Source of the DNA: Persephonella sp. KM09-Lau-8
Lineage (GTDB): Bacteria > Aquificota > Aquificia > Aquificales > Hydrogenothermaceae
Direction of reading: 5' to 3'
Assembly: GCF_000703085.1 (NCBI RefSeq)
Contig: NZ_JNLL01000001.1
Span: 1,674,001 to 1,738,000, forward strand
Length of the DNA stretch: 64,000 bases
Shown here: in pieces, positions 50,942 to 63,710 of the stretch
How the letters are laid out: each line of letters begins with the position of its first letter
Position numbering within the stretch: position 1 is the first letter of the stretch
Notes under the pieces: generated by a model
Database searches by the model: none
What the model was told of the DNA's origin: nothing
What the model saw: the letters and a program-made list of their open reading frames with translations, nothing else
Program-made: the position numbers and the translations under genes

Positions 50942-51018
50942 CGCGGGGTGGAGCAGCCTGGTAGCTCGCCGGGCTCATAACCCGGAGGTCGAGGGTTCAA
51001 ATCCCTCCCCCGCAACCA
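50942..51018 (+). tRNA. Initiator tRNA-Met (anticodon CAT)
   Basis: Initiator features are clear: the unpaired C1-A72 at the acceptor end (CGCGGGG/CCCCGCA), three G-C pairs in the anticodon stem (CCGGG CTCATAA CCCGG), T loop TTCAAAT, and encoded CCA (51,016-51,018). It is nearly identical in layout to the E. coli fMet tRNA. Its 3' end is the left border of the integrated element. Confidence 0.95.
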
Positions 51019-52498
51019 TATTGATTTTACGGTCGTAGGTTCTAAACGGGTTCTTAAAGCTATACTCAATCCAGTAAAAGCCTTCTATTTTATCTTTTTC
51101 TATTCTGACTTCTTCAAGCACATTTTTTATTATTTCTCTTGCCAGAGATACATCCATACTTAACAAATTATCTATTTGCTCAAGGAGTATATCTATTACC
51201 CCATCGTCAATTTCTACCCCTTCTATTTCCTCAAAAGATTTAAGTTCCATTTCCAAAAGTCTTATCTGTTCTTCGTATTCCTGTATCTTTTTGGCTATGG
51301 TTTTACTTGGGTTTTCCTCAAATATCTCCAGGAAACTCTGGAGTTTTTTGTTTAAGGTTTCTATTTCTTTCTCTATATCTGATTTTGTCTTTTGTCTGGA
51401 GTATAGGGCTCTTATCTGTTTTTCCAGTTCTTCTTTGAATAGCTGTCTGTTTTCCATTAAATGTTGTTTTATAGCGTGTATAACAAGGGTGTTTAGCATA
51501 TTTTCTCTGAAACTTGCTGTTATATCGCAGGCTCCTACTAAAGCCTGTCTGCATTTGAAGGAAACCTTAGAATGCTTTATGAGATTACTTCCACACTGGC
51601 ATTTGATAAATCCGCCTAAAAGGGTTGTATATCCTACTCTGTTTTTGCTGTTGTCCTGTTTTTGTCTTAATACTCTTTTTCTGTTAGCCTCTTCCCATAT
51701 TTCCACAGGAACTATCTGTAAATCTGGTCTTTTTATCCTTACCCACTGCTCTGGTGGATTAGGTATTTTTTTCCTTTTTGAAAATCCTGGTATTTTACGG
51801 TATTGATATTTATTCCATACTATAACCCCCTTGTATATCTCATTTGTAATTATCTCCCTTACAGCTGTTAAAGACCACTTAGCTCCTCTTGGAGATGGAA
51901 TACCTCTCTGGTTTAGTATTTTTGCTATTTCTTTAAAGCCTTTCCCTGATATGTATAATTCAAATATCTCTTTGACTATTTCTGCTTCATTTTCGTCTAT
52001 GTAGAGTTCCCCATCCTTCAGTTTATATCCAAACTTAGGGGCAAATACTGCCTTTCCCTGCTGCAGCCTGCCATATAAACCTCTCCATGTGTTTTTTCTG
52101 ATGCTTTCTACATATTGTTCATCAGCTATACCGTTTGCAGATAATAATAACTCTATATTTTCCTGTTCAGTAGATATTCCCTGTGAAACAAATACAATGT
52201 TTACCCCGTAGATATATTTAAGCTCTCTTACCCTTAACTTTATTTCTGCTGTATCCCTGGATATTCTGCTTGTGTGGTATGTGTATATTTTCTTTATCCT
52301 GTGCTTTTTTACATACTCAAGCATCTGCTGATAAGCTTCTCTATCATCTGAAAGACCGCTTTTAGCCTCGTCAAAGAAAACAACAACAACTTCATCATTC
52401 TGCTTTTCTGCTTCTATCTGACAGAGAATAACCTGGTCTTTGATAGATTTTTTGTCCTGATTTTTAGAACTGTATCTTGCGTATATAACTGCCCTCAT
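50975..52498 (-). CDS. Large serine recombinase (site-specific integrase)
   Basis: Integrates and excises the element. The 507 residues have a resolvase catalytic domain (1-140; nucleophile Ser10 in [18 protein letters not shown] arginine motif), a Recombinase domain (about 155-270), a zinc ribbon ([10 protein letters not shown] ... [10 protein letters not shown], about 305-330) and a long coiled coil (about 350-430), the layout of large serine integrases. Its last 14 residues ([14 protein letters not shown]) are encoded antisense to the initiator tRNA and the stop codon lies over the tRNA anticodon. Integrated genome copies and the free circle should therefore encode different C termini. A 44-residue ORF is translationally coupled upstream. 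Confidence 0.92.
50976..51018 (+). other. Probable left attachment site (attL) in the initiator tRNA 3' half
   Basis: The integrase gene abuts and runs antisense into this segment, and everything to the right is accessory DNA, so the crossover most likely lies in the tRNA 3' half. No second copy of the tRNA 3' end was noticed up to 64,000, so attR should lie beyond the window. The exact core cannot be set from one end. Confidence 0.5.
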
Positions 52499-58992: not shown

Positions 58993-60444
58993 ATGTTTTC
59001 ATACAAAGAATTTGCTAGGCGCGCATATGAATATCTACAACATGTTGAAATAACAAGCAAAAATGCAAAAAAAATAGCAGAAGTATTGTTCTATCTTGCT
59101 GCAGAACTTGAAGAAAACACTATTAATATTAAGACTGTAGTTGACGACTTACGTGTAAAAAGAAAAAGCGTTTTTGAAAGCAAAAACTTTAAGAACTTTT
59201 TTATTAAAAATGTTAACAGAGAAATATTAAAGTCGCATCATGAAAAAGATGAAAGTGTAAAAACAAGAATAATAAGTCGTGCTTACTTTTCAAAAAATGA
59301 TGTAATTTCGCAAAAAAAAGCCATGCTTCAAAACAAAAGCAAATATAGTGATCTTGACTTAATATTAGCTGCGATTGATATATCTTCTGATGAAGAAATA
59401 TCAAAAATGTATGTAACCGTTAGAGCGTTAAAAGACAAGCTTGATGAAGAAACATACTCACAACTACGTAAATTTGCACGCAAAAAATTTAAAAGCTGTA
59501 GAATCCATGCAAAATATTTTCTATATGTGTTATCCCAAATTGAAGAATTTGAAGAAGAAAAAGTAGAAGAACAGAAAAATGTAAAAACTGAAAAAGAAAA
59601 AGAAACAAAAGAGAAGAAAAAATACAACTCAAAAACTGAAAAGAAAATTGATAAAAGCATTAAAATACATACATCTGAAGCAGATTATAAAAGATATAAA
59701 AAATCTGAAATACTTGATAAAGAGACTCGTTATAAACTTTATCTCTATCGTAGAAAGTATGAAGATGAACTTAAAAATACAAAGTTAACAAGATTAACAA
59801 AAGATGATTTACTATTTTTCCTAATCAATACTGAAAGACTCATTGAAAATCAATCATTATCTTTGCAACAAGTTCTAAATATTGTGCTATATGCAGATAA
59901 AAACCACGAAATTGAAAATCCAATAGGCTGGCTAATTGCACGTTTTATGATTGGTAGAGGACGCTTTTATTTTCTTCTAAATAATAAAAAACTAAAATTT
60001 AAGCAATCTGGGAAAATGAAATCTTCTTATGAAAGTTCTCATGAAAAAGGTAATGATATAGAGCAAGAAAAAGAAAGTAATGTCAATGATATATATATAA
60101 ATTCAGATTTAGCTTACTTTATGAAAAAGTATAATATCTCATCTCCTGAGATTTCATCTTATCTAAGCAAATTTGAACACCTAAGCGGTGATGTGAGCTA
60201 TATAGTTGAACGTTATCTCATAAATAAAATCTACAAAAATTACTTATCACAAGAAGAAAAACTAAAACTCATAAAATATGCAAAACAAGAAATACGTAAA
60301 TTTGCTGTTCCTCCTGAAACAGAAGAAGAATTTAAAGAAGAAATAAAATCTATCATTGCTGCCAAAATAAAAGATGATTATTTAACCCTCAGCATCAAAC
60401 AGAGATTACAATTACAAATGTCTGGCCAATATGATACCTCATAG
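58993..60444 (+). CDS. Large AT-rich gene of unknown function, possible replication protein (483 aa)
   Basis: ATG behind GGAGG. The protein has two helical halves joined by a Lys/Glu-rich coiled linker (about 193-225). The second half includes NIVLYADKNHEIENPIGWLIARFMIG, where the NPIGWLIARF segment loosely resembles winged-helix replication initiators and replisome organisers. No catalytic motif is visible. It is bordered by repeat-rich non-coding regions on both sides, which is the main reason to suspect a replication or maintenance role. Not recognised with certainty. Confidence 0.7.
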   Translation: MFSYKEFARRAYEYLQHVEITSKNAKKIAEVLFYLAAELEENTINIKTVVDDLRVKRKSVFESKNFKNFFIKNVNREILKSHHEKDESVKTRIISRAYFSKNDVISQKKAMLQNKSKYSDLDLILAAIDISSDEEISKMYVTVRALKDKLDEETYSQLRKFARKKFKSCRIHAKYFLYVLSQIEEFEEEKVEEQKNVKTEKEKETKEKKKYNSKTEKKIDKSIKIHTSEADYKRYKKSEILDKETRYKLYLYRRKYEDELKNTKLTRLTKDDLLFFLINTERLIENQSLSLQQVLNIVLYADKNHEIENPIGWLIARFMIGRGRFYFLLNNKKLKFKQSGKMKSSYESSHEKGNDIEQEKESNVNDIYINSDLAYFMKKYNISSPEISSYLSKFEHLSGDVSYIVERYLINKIYKNYLSQEEKLKLIKYAKQEIRKFAVPPETEEEFKEEIKSIIAAKIKDDYLTLSIKQRLQLQMSGQYDTS

Positions 60445-61047
60445 ATAACTCAAAAAATTTGACGATATTTGATAATATAAGAAACTATAAGCTTTTTTAT
60501 AAAAAACCCAACCCAAACCAATCCAAATTTAAATCCAAATAAATAAATCCAGAACCCAAACCTAAAAACCCTTTAAACCCATAAACCAACCAAACCTCAC
60601 TGCCGAGACAACCTCACAGCCTTTAACCTATAAAACCTCACAACCTCACAACCTATTTTTATTTAATTAATTTTTTTTTATGGCGGCGGCGGCGAAAAAT
60701 AAAAATTTGTTATTTTTAATAAAATAGTTATTTTTGCTGTCAGGTTATTCAGGTTATTTAGGTTCCTTAGTTATTTAAAAAGAAAATGTTATTTACAGGT
60801 TGTAAGGTTATTTAGGTTGTGAGGTATAAAAAGTTATTGCTGTCAGGTTGTCAGGTTGTTTAGGCTGTTAGGCAAGATATCTTATGACCTTTTCAACTTT
60901 ATAGCTTCTAAATGATTTTTCTTTTGAGAAGTACTTGAACTATTAAAGTAATAAACTATTAAAATAATAAAATAATAAATTGTTAAATTATTAAAATATT
61001 AAACTATTAAATTGTTATTTTAATACTTTAATCCTTAATTAAAGCTC
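60445..61047 (+). other. Non-coding region with AACCT/AGGTT inverted repeats and ATTAAA repeats
   Basis: About 600 bases with no credible ORF. The left half of the plus strand is C/A-rich (AACCC, AACCT), the right half G/T-rich (AGGTT), with a GGC repeat between, followed by an ATTAAA-rich tract (60,941-61,040) that consists almost only of A and T. Confidence 0.6.
60510..60875 (+). repeat. Large imperfect inverted repeat of AACCT / AGGTT units
   Basis: Left arm: units such as CCTCACAACCTCACAACCT (60,636-60,654). Right arm: CAGGTTATTCAGGTTATTT (60,741 on), CAGGTTGTAAGGTTATTT (60,796 on), GGTTGTGAGGT (60,816-60,826) and CAGGTTGTCAGGTTGTTT (60,844 on), unit period about 9-10 bases. The reverse complement of ~60,605-60,655 aligns with ~60,814-60,862. 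The centre holds GGCGGCGGCGG (60,682-60,692). Each strand is sharply skewed, so single strands would fold into a long hairpin. Confidence 0.7.
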
Positions 61048-61602
61048 TTAAGTAATCACTGCTTTTTTCTTTTTAAACTTTCTGCTGGGCTTATTGTATG
61101 CTTTCCATAAATCATAATCCATTTGTAGACCCAGCCAGAATTCTGCACTGGTTCCAAATCTTTCTGCTAATCTTATAGCCATTTCAGGAGTTATTCTTCT
61201 TTTTTTGTTTACTATTTCGTTAACAGCCCTTACACTAACTCCAAGTTCTCTGGCAAGCTTAGACTGGGAAAGTCCTAAAGGTTTCATAAACTCTTCTTCA
61301 AGAATTTCTCCCGGATGTGTAGGCTCTCTTTTAAGTTCTGCAATAGGAACAGCCTTTATTTGTTGTTTATATTTTAAAGCTTCTTTGAATTCTTTTATAT
61401 TCATTGTAAAACCTCCTTCTAAATCTCCTTTTAGTGCTTCTAACCTGTCGGAAGGTGGAACTTTCAAATCTTCCAGAGTTTTAGCCCTTCTTAACATATC
61501 TAACTTCCTAACAGCTCTTTTCCAAATGTCAGGAGGGAATTTTTTACTCCTACCAGTTCTATATAATCTTTCTGTATCCTTATCAATAAAATTTTTTATC
61601 AT
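61048..61602 (-). CDS. HigA-type antitoxin fused to a truncated HigB toxin
   Basis: The frame encodes about 60 residues of a HigB/RelE-type toxin N terminus (IKNFIDKDTERLYRTGRSKKFPPD ... PPSDRLEALKGD, cited in parts), then runs straight into a complete HigA antitoxin. The toxin's C-terminal catalytic part (normally ...WSIRINDQWRICF... and EIVDYH) is missing. The antitoxin has its own ATG at 61,404 (MNIKEFKEALKYKQQ) with a perfect AAGGAGGT site, and holds an XRE helix-turn-helix (LSQSKLARELGVSVRAVNEI) and the family motif FGTSAEFWLGLQ. So the functional product is probably the 118-residue antitoxin; the toxin is dead. Confidence 0.85.
   Translation of the reverse strand: MIKNFIDKDTERLYRTGRSKKFPPDIWKRAVRKLDMLRRAKTLEDLKVPPSDRLEALKGDLEGGFTMNIKEFKEALKYKQQIKAVPIAELKREPTHPGEILEEEFMKPLGLSQSKLARELGVSVRAVNEIVNKKRRITPEMAIRLAERFGTSAEFWLGLQMDYDLWKAYNKPSRKFKKKKAVIT
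61396..61423 (-). promoter_or_regulatory. Internal ribosome binding site and start of the antitoxin
   Basis: On the minus strand GAAGGAGGTTTTACAATG: a full Shine-Dalgarno eight bases before ATG 61,404, inside the fused reading frame. Confidence 0.7.
61405..61602 (-). pseudogene. higB toxin remnant
   Basis: First ~60 codons of a HigB-like mRNA interferase, deleted just after LEALKGD and joined in frame to the ribosome binding site of higA. Catalytic residues of the family lie in the lost part. Confidence 0.75.
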
Positions 61603-61989: not shown

Positions 61990-62388
61990 ATGAAAATAGC
62001 ACAGCAGATAAAACAGAAAGCAGAAGAACAAATAAAAAACATTGTTATTAGTTTATACAAAGAGGGTAAAACTCAAAAAGCCATAGCAGAGGAAGTAGGT
62101 ATTTCTGTAAAAAAGGTTAGAAAGATACTAAAAGAGGCAGGACTTAGTAAAAATGCACCTTCAGAAAGACAGGTGGAATATCTTATGGGACTTATAACAA
62201 AGTTTTATGAAGTTAATGATATTCCCCTGCTAAAAAGTAAACTCTTTTCTCTATCTGATAAACAGATAAAAGGAATGTTCCTGACACTTAAAACATACAA
62301 ACAGATAAAACCTTCACTTCATTACTATGAAAAACTCTTAAACATAAAACTCAAGGAGGACAAAGATGGCAAGGAAAAAGATTACTGA
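61990..62388 (+). CDS. Helix-turn-helix protein (132 aa)
   Basis: Near the N terminus NIVISLYKEGKTQKAIAEEV then GISVKKVRKILKEAG forms a Hin/resolvase-type helix-turn-helix. The C-terminal 70 residues are helical and unfamiliar. It overlaps the next gene by 23 bases; the two are distant paralogs with the same layout, so they may form a heterodimeric regulator of the element. Confidence 0.7.
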   Translation: MKIAQQIKQKAEEQIKNIVISLYKEGKTQKAIAEEVGISVKKVRKILKEAGLSKNAPSERQVEYLMGLITKFYEVNDIPLLKSKLFSLSDKQIKGMFLTLKTYKQIKPSLHYYEKLLNIKLKEDKDGKEKDY

Positions 62389-62701
62389 TGAACTAAAAGA
62401 AAAAATTATAGAACTGTATAAACAGGGACTATCTTCTGTTGAGATATCCCATCAGGTAAATGTTTCTGCGAATTCTGTCTGCAAAATCATAAAAGAAAAC
62501 AAAGTTGAAAGAAATGTGGCTACAAAGGGAGAAATAAGAGCTTTAAAAAGGTATGCTGTCCAGCTTCTTGGAGCTGATGAGAAGGTTCTTGATGAAATTA
62601 TAAAAAAGCTTGATAAGAGAAGAGTTATTCAATACAGACTATCTCTGATGAGACTAAAGCCTTTTATAGAGGAGCTTAAAAATGCTTCAGCTAAAAATTA
62701 A
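62366..62701 (+). CDS. Helix-turn-helix protein, paralog of the preceding gene (111 aa)
   Basis: ELKEKIIELYKQGLSSVEIS with HQVNVSANSVCKIIKENK gives a helix-turn-helix at about residues 9-45, aligned with that of the preceding gene, followed by a similar helical tail with SLMRLKPFIEEL. AAGGAGG precedes its ATG within the upstream gene. It overlaps the HD-domain gene by 20 bases. Confidence 0.7.
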   Translation: MARKKITDELKEKIIELYKQGLSSVEISHQVNVSANSVCKIIKENKVERNVATKGEIRALKRYAVQLLGADEKVLDEIIKKLDKRRVIQYRLSLMRLKPFIEELKNASAKN

Positions 62702-63710
62702 ACTTGGAAGGCTGTATGAGTATTTAGAACCTTTTATTAGGGAGCTTGAAAACATTTCTTACGGATACAAAGCAAGTAAAGACCATCACCATACTGGAGA
62801 AGATGGATTGTTTCAGCACTCCGTAGATGTAGCAAATAAAATGCTTGATATATTCTTGGAAAATGAAGATAAATACCTGCCCAGATTTGAAAACGAAAAA
62901 ACAGGAGCTTACCAGACACGAAAGGAAAAATTCATGTTCCATCTTGCTCTAACAGGTCTTTTACATGATATTGGAAAAATAGCCGTTTATCAGGTTGAAA
63001 CTGGCTATTATTATGTGCCTTTTATAACTTCTTCAAAGGATGTTCAGGACAGCTTCATTAGGGAAAAGGAAAACACCAGCATTAACTACATAAACTCTAC
63101 CCATCTATCTGGAATGGTATTTGGAATACTTCTGGAAAGAGCAGGAAGGAAATATTATGAGAGCTTTCTTTATGATTTTCAGTTTATTACCATGATGCTT
63201 GAAGCTATTCATTTGGAGCACTATAAGATCATGCTCAATAATCCTATTTTACACATCCTTAGAAAAGCAGATGGTATGAGTATAGCAGAAGAAAGGAATG
63301 AGCCGTTTATTGAAACTCAAGAAGCACAAGAAACAATAAATGTTGATTTAGCAGGTATGTATGTAGATTTTTTCAAGCAGTGGACAAGGGTATCCACAAA
63401 CTTCTGGTTTTATACAGGAGATTATTTTTTAGTTATTAATCCAGCACTGCATAAGGAAAAGCTTATACGACAAATATCAGAACATATTGGACAGCCAGTT
63501 CACGAGGATAAAGTAATAGATGAGCTCATAGAAAAAGGTTATACAGAGGAAAGAATTACTCAGGTTAATGTGAAGCTGCCAAACGGCAAGGTTCACCCTT
63601 TCTCCGTGATTAAGCTAAAGGCAGATAAAGTTATGTCCCAGCAAGAAATAGAAAGCAGAAAGCTATCAAAAGTTGAGTTGTTAACACAAAATATGGAGAT
63701 AGGGACATGA
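62682..63710 (+). CDS. TraI_2/HD-domain protein (MOBH relaxase-like)
   Basis: The 342 residues carry an HD-type metal site: HHHTGEDGLFQHSVDVANKML (positions about 38-58, cited as motif) and LALTGLLHDIGKIAVY (about 89-104). This H-x-x-G-L-x-x-HS plus LLHDIGK pattern is that of TraI_2, the nicking domain of MOBH relaxases of large conjugative plasmids and ICEs. A winged-helix-like segment (about 265-290) follows. It is shorter than classical TraI relaxases, so nicking activity is an inference. The next ORF overlaps by ATGA. Confidence 0.75.
   Translation: MLQLKIKLGRLYEYLEPFIRELENISYGYKASKDHHHTGEDGLFQHSVDVANKMLDIFLENEDKYLPRFENEKTGAYQTRKEKFMFHLALTGLLHDIGKIAVYQVETGYYYVPFITSSKDVQDSFIREKENTSINYINSTHLSGMVFGILLERAGRKYYESFLYDFQFITMMLEAIHLEHYKIMLNNPILHILRKADGMSIAEERNEPFIETQEAQETINVDLAGMYVDFFKQWTRVSTNFWFYTGDYFLVINPALHKEKLIRQISEHIGQPVHEDKVIDELIEKGYTEERITQVNVKLPNGKVHPFSVIKLKADKVMSQQEIESRKLSKVELLTQNMEIGT

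What the first reader, a model, noticed from the sequence alone, without database searches (positions are those of the whole stretch)
60510..60875. Strand-asymmetric AACCT/AGGTT mega-inverted repeat around a GGC repeat
Over 360 bases the plus strand switches from AACCT-type units to AGGTT-type units, with (GGC)4 in the middle. A single strand could fold into a very long imperfect hairpin, like a hairpin telomere, a phage or plasmid single-strand origin, or a large non-coding RNA. Units have a 9-10 base period and differ slightly, so this is not simple slippage. I know of no described bacterial element of this form.
Basis: seen in the sequence. Interest (0 to 1): 0.7.

Follow-up and report, generated by a model that had tools for sequence, protein, structure and literature searches.

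The report
Opposed repeat array in conjugative elements
Between the maintenance and transfer genes of an integrated conjugative element in a hot-vent bacterium lie two blocks of short DNA repeats pointing away from each other; they are conserved between related elements and look like a landing pad for proteins that copy, sort or transfer the element, but this is untested.

Summary
At 60505-60873 the + strand carries 15 AACC and no GGTT on the left, a (GGC)4 centre, then 8 GGTT and no AACC on the right; this polarity lies far outside shuffles. The spacing is 8-9 bp (17-18 bp for every second unit), not 9-10. It is not an assembly artefact: four other assemblies of Persephonella and relatives carry it, 81-98% identical over the full array, as conserved as the neighbouring relaxase genes although intergenic. 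It lies in an integrated conjugative element, between a replication-initiator-like gene and an HTH-HTH-MobH-coupling-protein operon. The right block alone occurs on a 54-kb conjugative plasmid and twice on a 13.5-kb contig from other genera. Its GTTATTT-N~11-GTTATTT-AGGTT core is nearly exclusive to these elements among 136 genomes of the phylum. The arms can anneal, but support for a selected hairpin is weak: modest folding scores, little compensatory change, one arm sufficing on plasmids. I favour a cis-acting protein-binding array of the origin/partition type, working like the stbDRs of plasmid R388; replication origin and single-strand origin are the rivals. No binding protein or function is shown. 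New variant of a known kind.

The parts
60505..60656 (-). Left block (C-arm): AACCT(CAC) units, i.e. AGGTT units on the - strand; the outer part is AACCC/AATCC-type
   Evidence: conserved in G011, S141 (L059) and G008; interrupted by a HEPN/MNT pair in G009
60682..60694 (.). GC-rich centre, (GGC)4G; GC-rich but different in G008 and G009
60709..60873 (+). Right block (G-arm): GTTATTT pairs 17-18 bp apart and AGGTT units 8-9 bp apart
   Evidence: core found almost only in such elements in 136 genomes; 96-99% (G011, S141) and 85% (G008, G009) identical
60938..61017 (.). AT-rich array of about 9 units of 8 bp (TATTAAAx), possible easily melted region
   Evidence: present in G000, G011, S141 and G009
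58993..60444 (+). Replication-initiator-like protein; ~56-residue segment shared with plasmid Rep_3 initiators and with the large protein of the G022 contig
61048..61602 (-). HigB-like toxin and HigA antitoxin in one reading frame; variable toxin-antitoxin cargo beside the array
61990..62388 (+). Small helix-turn-helix protein HTH1 (132 aa), first gene of the mobilisation operon
62366..62701 (+). Small helix-turn-helix protein HTH2 (111 aa), paralogue of HTH1; weak match to CRISPR-repeat-binding Cbp1
62682..63710 (+). MobH/TraI_2 HD-type relaxase; TraD-like coupling protein follows beyond the window
50975..52498 (-). Large serine recombinase at the left end of the element, its reading frame overlapping tRNA-Met

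Best explanation
A cis-acting, double-stranded protein-binding array in the maintenance/transfer hub of conjugative elements of Hydrogenothermaceae. Two blocks of units spaced 8-9 bp, oriented away from each other around a GC-rich centre and next to an AT-rich 8-bp array, would be coated cooperatively by a small DNA-binding protein. In the integrated elements the candidates are HTH1/HTH2, encoded directly downstream. The nucleoprotein complex would control the neighbouring operons and act in transfer initiation and/or segregation at or near oriT, in the way StbA acts on the stbDRs of R388. Shown: position, conservation, unit structure, polarity and restriction to mobile elements. Inferred: that a protein binds it, which protein, and the link to oriT or partition.
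For: Intergenic, yet as conserved as the mobilisation genes: array 98/96/81% in G011/S141/G008; HTH1 95/93.5/84.5% in G011/S141/G009; MobH 89.5/80% in G011/G009; the rep gene only 71-79%. In four of the five integrated elements it lies between the rep-like gene and the HTH operon; in G008 the segment carrying rep and array is inverted. Regular 8/9/17/18-bp spacing with invariant AGGTT cores. The GTTATTT/AGGTT core is nearly exclusive to these mobile elements in 136 genomes, while the reversed control pattern gives 2 hits. A second, smaller array of opposed units lies about 30 nt upstream of a small ORF in the same element and its relatives, as R388 carries extra copies in other promoters (PMC3098194). 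On the G015 plasmid the block sits upstream of an operon with an ArdC-like gene. Toxin-antitoxin modules turn over beside it (HigBA, VapBC, HEPN/MNT, none), while the array itself is mostly kept.
Against: No relaxase was recognised on the 13.5-kb G022 contig. The only protein segment shared by all three kinds of carrier is the Rep-like one, which points to replication. HTH1/HTH2 match no StbA/TraK model. No nic site can be identified from sequence.
Confidence: 0.45

Rival explanations
1. It is the vegetative replication origin (oriV) of the excised element: GTTATTT/AGGTT iterons beside an AT-rich melting region, read by the adjacent Rep-like protein.
For: Adjacent rep-like gene; its ~56-residue segment is the only one shared by all carriers of the array. 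GTTATTT pairs at 17-18 bp spacing resemble iterons. Adjacent 8-bp AT-rich array. Mini GC-skew switch at the centre.
Against: The Rep N-terminal half comes in two unrelated types that cross the array groups: S141 (winged-helix type) has a right block 96% identical to that of G000 (other type), and G009/G008 show the same mismatch. G015 Rep_3 has its own five 21-bp iterons upstream of rep, 5 kb from the array. The G000:C2 plasmid has a Rep_3 with the same tail, its own 22-bp iterons and no array.
Confidence: 0.22
2. It is a single-strand origin or single-strand promoter (sso, Frpo/ssi type) that folds as one long imperfect hairpin on the transferred strand.
For: The arms can pair: 42 of 43 consensus pairs in G000 and 41 of 43 in G008 on the - strand, with two compensated pairs. 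z -4.8 and -3.7 in G008, -3.55 in G009. Next to a relaxase operon; ICEs can carry sso (PMC4595007).
Against: With the structure taken from one sequence the retention is mostly not significant (P 0.015-0.58). Modest z in G000. Right block without left arm on G015 and G022, where the G022 copy does not fold above shuffles. No promoter-like hexamers inside the array. In G009 the inner left arm is lost.
Confidence: 0.15
3. It encodes structured RNA: leaders of neighbouring operons or a long - strand RNA ending at the conserved run of T before 60505.
For: AGGTT units read in the sense direction of downstream genes in several carriers. Invariant T6 on the - strand at the outer end of the left block in five copies. 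Minus-strand folding scores are a little better than plus.
Against: No Rfam match; no terminator-like site found; weak covariation; no expression data.
Confidence: 0.1
4. Assembly artefact or simple slippage product.
For: Inverted arrangement and low complexity invite suspicion.
Against: Same array in independent assemblies of several species, units individually distinct and conserved.
Confidence: 0.01

Closest known systems
stbDRs and StbA of plasmid R388 (PMC3098194)
   Same: Arrays of short (9-bp) direct repeats at a divergent promoter between mobilisation and maintenance operons beside oriT, extra copies in other promoters, small DNA-binding protein encoded next door
   Different: Here two blocks face away from each other around a GC-rich centre, units are 8-9 bp without a fixed 2-bp gap, GTTATTT pairs are interspersed; relaxase is MobH; no recognisable StbA homologue; binding untested
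parS heptad arrays of pSM19035 (PMC9499535)
   Same: Contiguous short non-palindromic repeats in direct and inverted orientation, several sites per replicon over promoters
   Different: 7-bp WATCACW repeats bound by a ribbon-helix-helix protein with a ParA partner; neither partner was identified here
Iteron origins of Rep_3 plasmids
   Same: Direct repeats near a Rep-like gene and an AT-rich region
   Different: The Rep_3 plasmids of this family have separate, classical 21-22-bp iterons at rep
Single-strand origin sso1 of ICEBs1 (PMC4595007) and Frpo promoters (PMC11541004)
   Same: Foldable intergenic region of a conjugative element near transfer genes
   Different: Those depend on defined stem-loops; here the units rather than the fold appear conserved

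Membership tests
R388 stbDR/StbA type site | Array of about 9-bp direct repeats between maintenance and mobilisation genes | tested here: met
R388 stbDR/StbA type site | Repeat also in other promoters of the same element | tested here: met
   second mini-array upstream of a small ORF, (promoter function inferred)
R388 stbDR/StbA type site | Neighbouring gene for a StbA-family binding protein | tested here: not met
   small HTH proteins present, but no StbA/TraK model or structure match, and absent from G015/G022
R388 stbDR/StbA type site | Protein binds the repeats and affects transfer/stability | not testable with these tools
   needs gel shift and deletion
Iteron-type oriV | Repeats read by the adjacent initiator's DNA-binding domain | tested here: not met
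   N-terminal domain type does not track the array, though binding itself was not tested
Iteron-type oriV | AT-rich region next to the repeats | tested here: met
   60938-61017
Iteron-type oriV | Autonomous replication | not testable with these tools
   needs a cloning test in a suitable host
Single-strand origin / ssDNA promoter | Conserved secondary structure supported by compensatory change | tested here: inconclusive
Single-strand origin / ssDNA promoter | Folded -35/-10 promoter elements | tested here: inconclusive
   no hexamer pair inside the array by linear scan; the promoter arrangement in the folded strand was not modelled
Hairpin telomere | Located at a replicon end | tested here: not met
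   G000:C1:1734500 of 1910985; internal in G009
Described RNA family | Match to an Rfam model | tested here: not met

The most novel reading that the evidence does not exclude
A previously undescribed class of conjugative-element origin in Aquificota: two outward-facing repeat blocks around a GC-rich centre, which act together as a bidirectional loading site (double-stranded array) and, once single-stranded, as a long hairpin, with the one-block versions on plasmids as half-sites.
Probability: 0.12. Interest if true: 0.6.

Novelty: new variant of a known kind. Interest (0 to 1): 0.38.

Why it matters
The mobile elements of Hydrogenothermaceae are little studied; two library searches found no paper describing their origins. 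A short, recognisable cis-site that links integrated elements and plasmids of several genera would let their mobilisation or maintenance modules be found by sequence and would give a concrete target for transfer, replication and binding tests in thermophiles. The outward-facing arrangement asks why polarity is so strictly kept.

Tried and rejected
Pseudomonas syringae/Erwinia plasmid matches are pure (AACCTCAC)n microsatellites, unrelated. Viral contigs sharing CTGTCAGGTTGTCAGGTTG carry other CTGACAAC arrays without the GTTATTT core or a relative of the neighbourhood; left as coincidence. The G055 match to the core is inside a coding gene. No duplicate of tRNA-Met was found as a right attachment site. 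The predicted structure of the Rep-like protein is too uncertain (pLDDT 64) and has no PDB match; the HTH1 model gives only generic weak HTH hits. Direct BLASTP between the Rep-like protein and G015 Rep_3 failed; profile comparison succeeded. A consensus-structure compensation test looked significant (P about 5e-4) but used a structure derived from the same alignment; the single-sequence version removed most of the signal.

Full report
What is there. At 60505-60873 the + strand carries a left block of AACC units (15, no GGTT), a (GGC)4 centre at 60682-60693 and a right block of GGTT units (8, no AACC). The polarity index is 23, against a maximum of 12 in 2000 dinucleotide shuffles. Spacing is mostly 8, 9, 17 or 18 bp. 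The right block also holds GTTATTT pairs 17-18 bp apart. Sixty-five bases further right lies an AT-rich array of about nine 8-bp units (60938-61017).

Where it is. The window is G000:C1:1674001-1738000; named relatives are Persephonella and other Hydrogenothermaceae. The array is in an integrated conjugative element that starts at a large serine recombinase overlapping tRNA-Met and carries HTH1, HTH2, a MobH/TraI_2 relaxase (62682-63710) and a TraD-like coupling protein. To the left is a replication-initiator-like gene (58993-60444): its relative in G009 has weak matches to phage replication-initiation proteins, and a ~56-residue segment matches the tail of plasmid Rep_3 initiators (hhalign probability 94%, E 1.3e-7 for this single comparison) and the large protein of the G022 contig.

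Conservation. The array is present in G011, G008, G009 and the S141 MAG (G048 and L059 are the same contig). Full-array identity to G000 is 98, 96 and 81% (G011, S141, G008); the right block alone is 85% in G009. MobH is 89.5 and 80% (G011, G009) and the rep gene 71-79%. An intergenic stretch as conserved as the relaxase is probably under constraint. In G009 a HEPN/MNT toxin-antitoxin pair has been inserted into the left block; G008 has VapBC and G000 HigBA beside the right block, G011 none.

Outside these elements. The right block alone occurs on the 53.7-kb G015 plasmid, which has Rep_3, a TraD-like coupling protein and an HD-domain protein similar to MobH, and twice on the 13.5-kb G022 contig. 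The pattern GTTATTT-N8-14-GTTATTT-N0-12-AGGTT, searched in 136 genomes of the phylum, finds these seven carriers and one match inside a coding gene; the reversed control pattern finds two. A second, smaller opposed array is conserved upstream of a small ORF in the same element and its relatives.

Is the hairpin the point? The arms can anneal, but in G000 the fold is only slightly better than shuffles (z -1.5 and -2.1). G008 and G009 fold better (-2.4 to -4.8). On a structure derived from the alignment, pair retention looks significant; on structures derived from one sequence, P ranges from 0.015 to 0.58. One-arm versions on other replicons argue that the units carry the function. Arm pairing as an additional function is not excluded.

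Is it a replication origin? The Rep-like segment is the only one shared by all three kinds of carrier, a point for this reading. Against it, the Rep N-terminal half exists in two unrelated types that cross the two array groups, and the Rep_3 plasmids have their own 21-22-bp iterons at rep, so the array is unlikely to be read by the initiator's N-terminal DNA-binding domain. A role of the shared C-terminal segment is open.

Most likely mechanism. Cooperative binding of a small protein along each block, forming a nucleoprotein complex between the maintenance and mobilisation genes that controls transfer and/or segregation. The closest described arrangement is R388: two sets of five 9-bp repeats around the stbABC promoter beside oriT, further copies in other promoters, bound by StbA (PMC3098194). 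HTH1/HTH2 are the natural candidates in the integrated elements, but they lack detectable StbA similarity and are absent from G015 and G022. It works like that system at most; membership is not claimed. Binding, reader and function are inference.

Verdict. A genuine, conserved cis-element of conjugative elements in one bacterial family; a new variant of a known kind (origin/partition repeat arrays). Interest moderate.

Noticed in passing
L022:18060-18190 (G000:C1 about 1742060-1742190); L105:3390-3530; L107:12860-13010; L104:1-80: Second, smaller opposed array (AACCTAAAAGCC / GGCAGTAAGGTT) about 30 nt upstream of a small ORF in the same family of elements.
   Followed up: partly
L106:16780-16880: Related element in G024 has a GGATTGGTTT-type array instead, 7 kb from its mobilisation genes, resembling the outer left part of the window's array.
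   Followed up: no
window 61048-61602: HigB-like toxin and HigA antitoxin run together in one reading frame, the toxin part short.
   Followed up: no
window 50942-52498: Large serine recombinase frame runs into tRNA-Met; no second tRNA copy found as right attachment site.
   Followed up: partly
L023:300-13655 (G000:C1 1744300-1757655): Cluster of TIR-like proteins with an Avs2-like defence gene (PADLOC E 6e-222) next to the element.
   Followed up: partly
L024:7107-10577 (G000:C2): Rep_3 initiator of the 164-kb plasmid split by an insertion of a recombinase-transposase pair; 22-bp iterons at rep.
   Followed up: partly
L017:3315-16970 (G008:C53): The segment from the ATPase gene to the array is inverted relative to the other elements, and the MobH reading frame is broken; real or a MAG error.
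   Followed up: no
L114:7290-7560, L112:755-1020: Two viral contigs carry other arrays of CTGACAAC/TTGTCAG units, in L112 in both orientations.
   Followed up: partly
L056:1490-1760 (pFKN): Pure (AACCTCAC)n microsatellite on Pseudomonas syringae plasmids.
   Followed up: yes
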